The notes under the pieces were generated by a model, which saw nothing but the letters and a program-made list of their open reading frames with translations, did not search any database and was not told where the DNA came from. The position numbers were made by a program, and so were the translations under genes. From a virus: a stretch of 24,259 nucleotides of DNA. The stretch is from positions 1 through 24,259 of IMG/VR virus record IMGVR_UViG_3300030107_002499; one strand, 5' to 3'. Positions 618-7,792 of the stretch are shown here, piece by piece (position 1 is the stretch's first letter; every line of letters begins with the position of its first letter).

Positions 618-1074
618 CCAGTGGGAAGAAGGTAGACGACAATTAAAAATCAGTAGAGCACGACTAGCTAAAAGAAAGCTGGCAGACTCAGCAAAAGAAG
701 TCCTTAAAACAACAAATCTAGGTCGGACAACTATAGCAAATGCAAGGGCTGTTACAGGACGTACAGCAAATATTCCTGTAAAGAATATGAAAACGTCAAT
801 GGCTTTAGAAAGACCAAAGACACCTACACAAAAAGTAGTATCTAAAATAACTTCTTTTGGTAAAGGAGCACTTAAAATAGCTACACCATTAGTTGTAGCA
901 CAGTCAGCATATAGTTTATTTGGTCCTGAAGGACTTGTGAACCAAACTTTTAATGAAGCTGTAGAGCACGGAAAAAAACGTGGTGAACGTCACAGACGGA
1001 AAGCTCAGATACCAAAAGCAAAACACGTAAGTAAAATTATACAATCAAGTTTAAACAAATTAAGAGATAGATGA
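610..1074 (+). CDS. Hypothetical basic protein with a hydrophobic central segment
   Basis: A 154-residue protein starting at ATG 610, inside the end of the endolysin gene, so probably translationally coupled. It is strongly basic at both ends (N-terminal RARLAKRKLADSAK; C-terminal GKKRGERHRRKAQIPKAK). Around residues 85-106 there is a moderately hydrophobic stretch (ALKIATPLVVAQSAYSLFG) that could be an amphipathic or membrane-associating helix. I recognise no family. Its place between endolysin and small terminase would suit a lysis accessory or a minor virion protein, but neither is shown. It resembles in style (small, Lys/Arg-rich, one hydrophobic patch) the proteins at 22067-22510 and 22510-22911, without clear alignment. 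Confidence 0.7.
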   Translation: MGDQWEEGRRQLKISRARLAKRKLADSAKEVLKTTNLGRTTIANARAVTGRTANIPVKNMKTSMALERPKTPTQKVVSKITSFGKGALKIATPLVVAQSAYSLFGPEGLVNQTFNEAVEHGKKRGERHRRKAQIPKAKHVSKIIQSSLNKLRDR

Positions 1075-1295
1075 TGTCTTCAACACACGAAACACTATCC
1101 ACACTCCATACCGCAGTAGCTCAAGAGTTACTAGATCGTATTAAGAGTGGTGAAGCTAAACCAGCAGATCTCGCAGTTGCCGTAAAGTTTCTCAAAGATA
1201 ATAACATTGAGTCACTTCCAGTTGACAATACTCCATTTAAAAGTTTGATTGACGCTATACCTTTTCCAACACACGATGAAACGAGAATCTCTTAA
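1071..1295 (+). CDS. terS: Putative terminase small subunit (T7 gp18 / DNA maturase A type)
   Basis: A 74-residue protein starting at ATG 1071 (ATGATG, second Met at 1074), overlapping the upstream stop as ATGA. The segment LHTAVAQELLDRIKSGEA followed by LAVAVKFLKDNNIESLPVD matches the pattern of small terminase subunits in T7-like marine phages: an N-terminal helix beginning LH..VA.EL, a GEA turn, then a helix ending FLKDNNI. The family is short (T7 gp18 is about 90 residues). It would recognise concatemeric phage DNA and recruit the large subunit encoded at 2674-4350. Between the two lie four small genes, more than in T7. The assignment rests on motif recall and position, not on an alignment. 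Confidence 0.65.
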   Translation: MMSSTHETLSTLHTAVAQELLDRIKSGEAKPADLAVAVKFLKDNNIESLPVDNTPFKSLIDAIPFPTHDETRIS

Positions 1296-1437
1296 ACAAC
1301 GAGAACAGAGAATTAGTTATCAACAATCAATGGGTATGAGAGAACGTAACATGGTTGACAATATATGCGAAGAGTGTAACCAAGATCCTTGCGTTTGTAA
1401 AGAAAAGAAATTAATAGAAATAAGAGGAGGTCAGTAG
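1276..1437 (+). CDS. Small Cys-rich (zinc-knuckle-like) protein, 53 aa
   Basis: An open frame from ATG 1276 overlaps the end of the small-terminase gene by 20 bp and ends at TAG 1435-1437. An in-frame ATG at 1249 exists, but it would lie deeper inside the upstream gene. The N-terminal half is basic and Gln/Glu-rich. The C-terminal half has CEECNQDPCVC at 31-41, four Cys in a CxxC-x4-CxC arrangement that could bind one zinc ion. I know no named family for it. The end of the gene contains the strong AGGAGGT ribosome-binding site (1425-1431) of the next gene, so the two are likely coupled. There is no good ribosome-binding site before 1276, so expression may depend on the upstream gene. Confidence 0.6.
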   Translation: MKRESLKQREQRISYQQSMGMRERNMVDNICEECNQDPCVCKEKKLIEIRGGQ

Positions 1438-2081
1438 TGGACCCTGTGAAACGTAGGACATTCTTAAAGATAGTAGGTGCTGGTTCTTTAGCTACTATAG
1501 GTAACATAGGTTCTTCAGGAAAGGTTACTCCTGTTAAGCCTGTGGCTCCTACGACACTCAAGATTACACCAAAAGGTAGAGCATATAGAGAGTTTTTGAA
1601 AACTCCTTTAGTAGCTCATAGTATAGAAAACCATGCTGAGTTACGTACTAAAACTTTTAACGCTAATACTTTTGAAGAGTTTAGTGCTGAATACGATGAA
1701 GCTAAACGTAAATTTAGAAATACTGTTGCCAAACCTGCTTTTAAAGAAGCTGTAGACAAAACCAATATTGATATAGCAGAACGAAAAAAAGTTATAAACC
1801 CCTCTCTTCCTGCGAGTAGCAAACCTTCAGTTGCTAGAAAACATCCTTTTATGGATAGATTGGCTAGTAACCCTTATAGAAATATAAGTCAAGGTGCTAA
1901 TATAGAAAGAAACAAACACGCTGCTGGTTTAATTAAAGATGCTCGTTCAGCATACGCTAAACAAATAAAACTAGCACGAGACAAAATAAGTAGTGCTAAA
2001 AAACCTGTCGTTGCTAAACCTGTAAAAAAGCGTAGTCTGTTGCACATAGTTAAGAAAATATTTACTAAAGGAAGGGGATAG
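1437..2081 (+). CDS. Basic protein with a Tat-type (twin-arginine) N-terminal signal
   Basis: A 214-residue protein starting at GTG 1437, chosen because AGGAGGT (1425-1431) lies 5 bases upstream; an in-frame GTG at 1446 is too far away. The N-terminus KRRTFLKIVGAGSLATIG (residues 5-22) fits the twin-arginine signal consensus (S/T)RRxFLK followed by a weakly hydrophobic Gly/Ala segment. No clear AxA cleavage site follows, so the signal may stay as an anchor. The rest is Lys/Arg/Ala-rich with several helical stretches (for example FEEFSAEYDEAKRKF) and a very basic C-terminus (KPVKKRSLLHIVKKIFTKGRG). I recognise no domain. If the signal works, the host Tat system would carry the folded protein to or across the inner membrane. 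The neighbouring secreted protein at 2310 makes an envelope or lysis role conceivable. Confidence 0.75.
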   Translation: MDPVKRRTFLKIVGAGSLATIGNIGSSGKVTPVKPVAPTTLKITPKGRAYREFLKTPLVAHSIENHAELRTKTFNANTFEEFSAEYDEAKRKFRNTVAKPAFKEAVDKTNIDIAERKKVINPSLPASSKPSVARKHPFMDRLASNPYRNISQGANIERNKHAAGLIKDARSAYAKQIKLARDKISSAKKPVVAKPVKKRSLLHIVKKIFTKGRG

Positions 2082-2082
2082 C

Positions 2083-2313
2083 GTGTCTCTATTACGTACA
2101 CTATTAAAACAGCACGATTTAACTCCAGATGATATTAAAAAGTTAAAACAGATAACTCCTAAGATAGAGAATATTTCAAGACAGAATAGAATTTTAACAG
2201 CTTTAAAACCTAAAGATCCGTCTATTGACATTAAGAAAGTACAAAGTATTATGAATAAATATATAAAAAAGAAGCCTGTCAAGCACGGATTGAAAATAAA
2301 AAAGAAAGAATGA
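2083..2313 (+). CDS. Hypothetical small basic protein, 76 aa
   Basis: The start is GTG 2083, one base after the upstream stop, with a GGAAGGGGA ribosome-binding site inside the upstream end. The protein is helical and Lys-rich: the N-terminal LLRTLLKQHDLTPDDIKKLKQ looks like a short helix-turn-helix-sized unit, and the C-terminus is a run of lysines (KKKPVKHGLKIKKKE). No domain was recognised. It overlaps the next gene by ATGA (2310-2313). A nucleic-acid or membrane-surface interaction is plausible from charge alone, but no function can be assigned. Confidence 0.6.
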   Translation: MSLLRTLLKQHDLTPDDIKKLKQITPKIENISRQNRILTALKPKDPSIDIKKVQSIMNKYIKKKPVKHGLKIKKKE

Positions 2314-2642
2314 TAAAGTATATATTAATTCATACAGCCCTTATAGCGGCTCTTTTATTTCCCAACACTGCGTTAGGTATTAAAACCAAGGGTTCCTTTA
2401 CGACACAGCAGATTAGAATGCTCTGGATGGGGTGTTATCAAGGAGCCAACATGAAGAGTCCTCAGTCACCCCAGGTCAATGGAATGGTCTGTGATTGTAT
2501 CTTAGATAAAACCAGGATACTTTATACGTATGATGAAATAGAAAAAAAGTCAGGTAAACCCATGCAAGACGAATATAGCAGGTTAGCTGATGTTTGTATT
2601 AATGAACTTGGGTTAAGACCTAATCCAGAATTAAGTATATAG
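2310..2642 (+). CDS. Secreted Cys-containing protein with Sec signal peptide
   Basis: A 110-residue protein starting at ATG 2310 (ATGA overlap). Residues 1-23 form a classical signal peptide: a positive Lys at 3, the hydrophobic core ILIHTALIAALLF, then cleavage probably after ALG (21-23). The mature part has four Cys: C42 (MGCYQG), C61 and C63 (MVCDCILD), and C96 (ADVCINEL). This would suit two disulfide bonds in the periplasm. There is no lipobox, so it is not an obvious o-spanin. I do not recognise the family. Its place between the terminase subunits, beside a Tat-signal protein, suggests an envelope function late in infection, perhaps lysis or superinfection exclusion; this is inference from location and export only. 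Confidence 0.75.
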   Translation: MIKYILIHTALIAALLFPNTALGIKTKGSFTTQQIRMLWMGCYQGANMKSPQSPQVNGMVCDCILDKTRILYTYDEIEKKSGKPMQDEYSRLADVCINELGLRPNPELSI

Positions 2643-7532: not shown

Positions 7533-7737
7533 CAATAACGAATTAACTGATGAGTACAGGCAGAACTATAGATTTCTACCACACTATAGCTACCTAGTAG
7601 GTGTGAGTCTACGACTAGAGGTAGACCATTCAGTAGATATGGTGTCTGTCCACTACAATCGTAAACTGCTGGAAGGAGCAGTAAAGGATGTTATAACTAA
7701 GAACATGGGTGAGTATCCAAATGTAAAAGGAACCTGA
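7468..7737 (+). CDS. Hypothetical protein whose 3' end overlaps the tRNA-Tyr gene, 89 aa
   Basis: The open frame is taken from ATG 7468, with TGGAG (7459-7463) 4 bases before it; an earlier in-frame ATG at 7444 has no ribosome-binding site. The N-terminal part is basic and low in hydrophobics. The middle (YSYLVGVSLRLEVDHSVDMVSVHYNRKLLEGAVKDVITKNMG) looks like strand-strand-helix and is the most protein-like part. The last ten codons and the stop lie inside the 5' half of the tRNA-Tyr gene (7707-7792). Either this dual use is real or the true protein ends differently in related phages. No family was recognised. Confidence 0.45.
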   Translation: MGILNRGSQVHRDRTKYHRPSSNNELTDEYRQNYRFLPHYSYLVGVSLRLEVDHSVDMVSVHYNRKLLEGAVKDVITKNMGEYPNVKGT

Positions 7738-7792
7738 CTGTAAATCAGGCGTGTGCACACACATGTAGGTTAAAATCCTACCTCACCCACCA
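7707..7792 (+). tRNA. tRNA-Tyr (anticodon GTA), class II with long variable arm, CCA encoded
   Basis: Acceptor GGGTGAG (7707-7713) pairs perfectly with CTCACCC (7782-7788), followed by ACCA. Anticodon arm CCTGA-CTGTAAA-TCAGG (7733-7749) gives anticodon GTA at 7740-7742. The variable region 7750-7764 is long, with a GTGT/ACAC stem, as expected of bacterial tRNA-Tyr. T stem GTAGG/CCTAC (7765-7769, 7777-7781) is perfect. Oddities: the D stem is only 3 bp (TCC/GGA), its loop lacks the usual GG pair, and the T loop is TTAAAAT instead of TTCRANT, so the G19-C56 elbow pair is missing on both sides. Confidence 0.88.

What the first reader, a model, noticed from the sequence alone, without database searches (positions are those of the whole stretch)
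1437..1530. Twin-arginine (Tat) signal on a phage protein in the packaging cassette
The product of 1437-2081 begins with KRRTFLKIVGAGSLATIG, a near-consensus Tat signal, behind an excellent ribosome-binding site. Tat export of phage-encoded proteins is rare, and this gene lies between the terminase subunits, next to a Sec-exported protein. A folded, highly basic phage protein delivered to the periplasmic side could act in lysis, receptor blocking or envelope remodelling.
Basis: partly seen in the sequence, partly recalled or inferred. Interest (0 to 1): 0.62.

Follow-up and report, generated by a model that had tools for sequence, protein, structure and literature searches.

The report
Phage accessory protein with Tat signal
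An uncultured, probably marine T7-like phage carries a rare optional gene whose protein starts with a convincing twin-arginine export tag, kept in a relative whose tag differs in DNA and most residues, so the phage probably sends a very basic protein into the host's cell envelope for a purpose not yet known.

Summary
ORF 1437-2081 (GTG, AGGAGG six bases upstream) encodes 214 aa beginning MDPVKRRTFLKIVGAGSLATIGNIGSSGK: RR, F+2, L+3, K+4, then a 14-residue uncharged, weakly hydrophobic stretch and a basic c-region. In the most divergent one (L006) the signal differs in DNA (28 of 48 aligned bases match; synonymous sites near saturation) and most residues, yet reads MEISRRNLLKLGGATVAVGASIGSSGK and passes Pfam's TAT_signal cut-off in a genome search. 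The gene is an orphan accessory gene of one uncultured T7-like clade. It is cleanly absent, start codon to start codon, from a near-identical relative (L004). It is mosaic: conserved signal, constant linker, swapped or freely evolving middle, and a conserved basic C-terminus ending in an amphipathic helix. It lies in a TerS-TerL slot that in relatives holds Na/Pi transporter, PstS and IscU-like genes. Tat targeting is likely; the function (outer-membrane disruption, exclusion or other) is unproven. 'Folded' is not supported by the structure model. It is a new orphan family using a known export route, of moderate interest.

The parts
1425..1430 (+). Shine-Dalgarno sequence AGGAGG, 6 nt before the GTG start
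   Evidence: sequence; kept in L001, L002 and L006; in L004 the same RBS serves the next gene
1437..2081 (+). the gene: 214-aa basic protein with N-terminal Tat signal (GTG start)
1437..1520 (+). Tat signal region, codons 1-28 (MDPVKRRTFLKIVGAGSLATIGNIGSSG)
1452..1457 (+). twin-arginine codons R6-R7 (CGT AGG; AGA AGG in L006)
   Evidence: invariant in all homologues; codon change
1506..1601 (+). constant block I24-K55 (Pro/Lys-rich linker), 89/96 nt identical to L006 with a 65-nt perfect run; where the divergent segments rejoin
1602..1940 (+). variable middle, codons 56-168: unrelated in L002/L003, freely diverging from L006 (dN/dS about 0.9)
1941..2078 (+). conserved basic C-terminus, codons 169-214 (dN 0.18, dS 1.40 against L006)
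2031..2063 (+). C-terminal amphipathic segment RSLLHIVKKIF, the highest 11-residue hydrophobic moment in all three alleles
1071..1295 (+). TerS (T7 gp18-like), 5' border of the accessory slot
1276..1437 (+). small ORF upstream (Cys motif CEECNQDPCVC), stop overlapping the GTG; its 3' half diverges in L006 together with the Tat signal
2083..2313 (+). basic 76-aa neighbour; in L004 it follows directly from the upstream RBS in place of the Tat gene
2310..2642 (+). 110-aa protein with Sec signal and four conserved Cys; a lipoprotein-type signal in L028
2674..4350 (+). TerL (T7-type), 3' border of the slot

Best explanation
The gene is an accessory gene in a variable TerS-TerL slot of an uncultured, probably marine T7-like phage clade. 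Its protein carries a real Tat signal, so the host Tat translocase most likely delivers it to the periplasmic side of the inner membrane (inferred). There the conserved, very basic C-terminus with its amphipathic end helix binds membrane or anionic envelope polymers, while the variable middle does allele-specific work or is free to vary. My best guess for the role is a late envelope-weakening factor helping outer-membrane disruption at lysis. Shown by sequence: Tat-type N-terminus under purifying selection, accessory status, mosaic middle, conserved basic C-terminus. Inferred: export. Speculative: the lysis role.
For: RR kept in all homologues with the Arg codon changed CGT to AGA; signal region dN 0.59 against dS 2.08; L006 signal over Pfam's TAT cut-off in a genome search; weakly hydrophobic h-region and basic residues K29/K34 just after it, which fits Sec avoidance (sequence; established Tat knowledge). 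Gene cleanly missing in L004, whose TerL is 99.8% identical. Middle of L002 unrelated while both ends match. C-terminus dN/dS about 0.13, and RSLLHIVKKIF is the most amphipathic segment in all alleles. No plausible o-spanin lipoprotein found in the lysis genes examined by a simple lipobox scan; phage disruptins that attack the outer membrane are recognised (mentioned in PMC9239132), and T7 keeps Rz/Rz1 in this interval (own knowledge). TatC is reported throughout the sequenced alphaproteobacterial order that included SAR11 (PMC3827258).
Against: No export assay or trained signal-peptide predictor was available. The window allele is below Pfam's TAT cut-off and has no clear AxA site. Only five contigs, three alleles. 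The model gives no confident fold, while Tat prefers folded cargo. The gene is absent from a near-identical phage, so it cannot be an essential lysis gene. The host is unknown.
Confidence: 0.42

Rival explanations
1. Tat-exported superinfection-exclusion or competition factor: the conserved ends place it at the envelope, and the swapped middle binds or masks a receptor or blocks DNA entry of particular competitors.
For: Ends conserved while the middle is replaced wholesale between phages whose TerL is 99.6% identical and evolves at dN/dS about 0.9 against L006; presence/absence polymorphism.
Against: The gene lies among late packaging and lysis genes, whereas exclusion genes are usually early (own knowledge); no similarity to any known exclusion protein in Pfam or PHROGs; dN/dS near 0.9 may be plain relaxation.
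Confidence: 0.22
2. Not exported: a cytoplasmic nucleic-acid-binding or virion protein, like its basic neighbours, whose N-terminus merely resembles a Tat signal.
For: Mature pI 10.5; neighbouring genes 610-1074 and 2083-2313 are basic and lack signals; packaging neighbourhood; window allele under Pfam's cut-off; no clear AxA site.
Against: RR, L+3, K+4 and an uncharged weakly hydrophobic stretch kept in L006 despite near-saturated synonymous change; chance rate about 1.4e-4 per ORF.
Confidence: 0.25
3. Tat decoy: the signal engages TatBC but is not cleaved, anchoring the protein at the translocase and impairing host Tat export.
For: No clear AxA site in the window allele (sequence); an uncleaved Tat signal would leave the protein tethered to the membrane.
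Against: No precedent found; L006 has a plausible site (VGA|S), so cleavage is possible; no reason why Tat inhibition would help a lytic phage is apparent.
Confidence: 0.06

Closest known systems
Bacterial Tat signal peptides (Pfam PF10518 TAT_signal; TIGR02811-type leaders)
   Same: RR with F/L at +2, L at +3, K at +4, weakly hydrophobic uncharged h-region, basic c-region; L006 exceeds the family cut-off in a genome search.
   Different: Window allele under the cut-off, K in place of S/T at -1, no clear AxA site; the cargo is an orphan phage protein and not a cofactor enzyme.
T7 Rz/Rz1 spanins (genes 18.5/18.7) in the TerS-TerL interval
   Same: Same genomic interval, late, envelope-directed.
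   Different: No N-terminal transmembrane anchor plus coiled coil, no lipobox, Tat and not Sec/Lsp signal, dispensable in L004.
Phage disruptins (outer-membrane-disrupting lysis proteins, mentioned in PMC9239132)
   Same: Strongly cationic with an amphipathic helical segment (that disruptins are cationic is own knowledge).
   Different: Has an export signal and is accessory; no sequence similarity was tested because no disruptin sequence was at hand.
Phage Mu gp25 releasin with a reversed RR motif (PMC9239132)
   Same: A proposed link between a phage envelope protein and the Tat system.
   Different: gp25's RR follows its transmembrane segment (reversed order); here the order is canonical and at the N-terminus.

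Membership tests
Tat substrate (PF10518-type signal) | RR pair followed by x-[FLIVM]-[LIVMF], often K at +4 | tested here: met
   KRRTFLK; SRRNLLK in L006
Tat substrate (PF10518-type signal) | uncharged, weakly hydrophobic h-region after RR | tested here: met
   14 residues, mean KD 1.32 and 1.30
Tat substrate (PF10518-type signal) | score above the curated Pfam cut-off | tested here: inconclusive
   window 13.8 bits and L001/L002 15.7 under 22.7; L006 23.8 over in the genome search but 21.2 in hmmscan
Tat substrate (PF10518-type signal) | AxA-like signal peptidase site | tested here: inconclusive
   none clear in the window allele (SSG|K at best); VGA|S in L006 (sequences)
Tat substrate (PF10518-type signal) | RR kept across homologues | tested here: met
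   all homologues found
Tat substrate (PF10518-type signal) | export lost without TatC or without RR | not testable with these tools
   needs an experiment
T7-type spanin (Rz/Rz1) | o-spanin lipobox Cys, or i-spanin TMD with coiled coil | tested here: not met
   no Cys in the protein; no 19-residue TM segment found in it
Disruptin | cationic amphipathic, disrupts the outer membrane | tested here: inconclusive
   cationic and amphipathic by sequence; activity not testable

The most novel reading that the evidence does not exclude
A tailed phage of bacteria hijacks the host Tat translocase to deliver a cationic envelope-attacking or exclusion protein with an exchangeable central domain, a route not described for tailed phages in the papers searched.
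Probability: 0.25. Interest if true: 0.6.

Novelty: new variant of a known kind. Interest (0 to 1): 0.4.

Why it matters
Phage envelope effectors are thought to use Sec, lipoprotein export or signal anchors. A Tat-routed one would show a further route for phage proteins across the inner membrane and would make host Tat a determinant of infection outcome. The mosaic design (fixed export tag and basic tail, exchangeable middle) also makes the question of what selects the middle directly testable.

Tried and rejected
Tat protein against 50,697 phage records by tblastn: only an insignificant match (E 0.6); the L006 allele gives none. Genome contigs: none. IMG/VR by protein, alignment and DNA pattern found no contigs beyond the same four. 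The L002 middle alone: nothing beyond L002/L003. PHROGs and NCBIfam: nothing meaningful. Fold: low confidence, so no fold search was made. Sec neighbour folded (pLDDT 77.9), but no PDB match better than E 1.3. Host from the Na/Pi transporter: the best genome hit (77%) lies in a contig filed under a Chloroflexi MAG whose neighbouring ORFs look phage-like; host left open. The 65-nt identical block was considered as a conserved DNA element and rejected: TerL of the same pair has an 88-nt perfect run at 89.7% identity, so it only reflects recent shared ancestry or recombination. A spanin reading was rejected for lack of lipobox or TMD.

Full report
The window is a 24,259-base virus record of a T7-like phage: single-subunit RNA polymerase, primase/helicase, DNA polymerase, exonuclease, ribonucleotide reductase, T7-type head-tail adaptor and scaffold, TerS and TerL. 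Its nearest annotated relatives by TerL are Roseobacter phages such as CRP-125 (64.7%), then Rhizobium and Pelagibacter phages. The host is unknown; a marine alphaproteobacterium is a guess from these relatives.

The ORF 1437-2081 begins with GTG six bases after AGGAGG, overlaps the stop of the upstream ORF by one base, and encodes 214 aa. The N-terminus reads MDPVKRRTFLKIVGAGSLATIGNIGSSGKVTPVKP. Against the Tat consensus (S/T-R-R-x-F-L-K) it lacks only the S/T. The h-region is uncharged for 14 residues with mean hydropathy 1.32, lower than the Sec signal of the gene at 2310 (2.52 over 12 residues). Random N-termini of this composition meet the rule at about 1.4e-4, and among 1661 ORFs of related loci it picks this gene and one 69-aa ORF of doubtful reality in L034.

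IMG/VR holds four other contigs with the gene: L001 (97%), L002 and L003 (54%), L006 (47%). All keep RR. L006 is the strongest case: its signal is MEISRRNLLKLGGATVAVGASIGSSGK, with 28 of 48 aligned bases identical to the window and the first Arg codon CGT against AGA. In this region synonymous change is near saturation (dS 2.08) while dN is 0.59 (only 20 codons, so approximate). L006 exceeds Pfam's TAT_signal cut-off in a genome search (23.8 against 22.7 bits; 21.2 in hmmscan); the window type does not (13.8-15.7 bits). In L006 the diverged segment begins within the upstream small ORF and ends at codon 23, where a constant block begins. Whether this is replacement or long divergence, the Tat features survived.

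The gene is accessory and mosaic. L004, whose TerL is 99.8% identical, lacks it exactly from start codon to start codon: AGGAGGTCAGTA is followed there by the GTG of the 2083 gene. In L002, whose TerL fragment is 99.6% identical, the first 55 and last 47 residues match the window almost perfectly but about 115 middle residues are unrelated (score 28 against 27 for shuffles). The L006 middle is a real but distant homologue of the window middle (score 100 against 28.5, s.d. 5.3) diverging at dN/dS near 0.9, whereas the C-terminus shows dN 0.18 against dS 1.40. So selection keeps the signal and the basic C-terminus, while the middle is exchanged or freely evolving. The C-terminus ends in KKRSLLHIVKKIFTKGRG, holding the most amphipathic 11-residue segment in all three alleles. 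The protein has no Cys or Trp and a mature pI of 10.5-11.0. AlphaFold2 gives no confident fold (pLDDT 59.5, five-row alignment).

The slot itself is a hotspot. Across relatives the TerS-TerL gap runs from about 0 to 1870 bases. It holds Na/Pi cotransporter-like ORFs, PstS-like ORFs (L018, L021), an ORF that reads like IscU (L028, from sequence only), small basic ORFs and a four-Cys Sec protein. The Tat gene occurs only in the window's clade; in L006 it directly precedes TerL and the two downstream genes are missing.

Mechanism. Export by host Tat is the most likely reading; SAR11 and other sequenced members of its then order are reported to have TatC (PMC3827258). The basic residues just after the h-region fit Sec avoidance (own knowledge). 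For the end function I favour envelope weakening at lysis: the site corresponds to T7 Rz/Rz1 (own knowledge), no plausible o-spanin lipoprotein was seen in the lysis genes examined, and disruptins that attack the outer membrane are recognised phage lysis proteins (named in PMC9239132). Against this, the gene is dispensable in L004. Exclusion with a variable recognition domain is the main exported rival; a non-exported basic packaging protein is the main sober rival.

Known context. Searches of the open-access library found no described Tat substrate of a tailed phage; the nearest is the suggestion that Mu gp25, with a reversed RR motif, may involve Tat (PMC9239132). Subscription papers were not searched, and haloarchaeal viruses were not examined. 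The protein family has no match in the curated libraries beyond the TAT signal.

Limits: five contigs and three alleles; no trained signal predictor; no host; shallow alignment for structure. The conclusion is a probable Tat-exported orphan accessory protein of unproven role.

Noticed in passing
1-149; full copy in L001 447-893: The window starts inside a 148-aa Na/Pi cotransporter-like ORF (PF02690, 3e-16; one repeat only), common in this phage group next to the lysis or terminase genes. PF02690 genes are already reported in HMO-2011-type phages (PMC9038755).
   Followed up: partly
L018 1801-2769; L021 1496-2464: PstS-like phosphate-binding protein with Sec signal in the TerS-TerL slot of related phages, where others carry the Na/Pi transporter or the Tat gene.
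   Followed up: partly
L028 895-1278: ORF MAYSSKVLEHYEKPKNIGSLDSRDNSVG..., which reads like an IscU iron-sulphur scaffold, in the same slot (recognised by eye, not tested).
   Followed up: no
2310-2642: Sec-exported 110-aa protein with four conserved Cys just before TerL; homologues also precede a different type of terminase (L115-L117), and L028 has a lipoprotein-type signal. Helical model, no PDB match.
   Followed up: partly
610-1074: Basic ORF between endolysin and TerS that varies in length and C-terminus among close relatives (154, 206, 212 and 194 aa), another fast-changing gene.
   Followed up: no
7707-7792: A tRNA-Tyr (GTA) gene in the window, a possible clue to host or integration site.
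   Followed up: no
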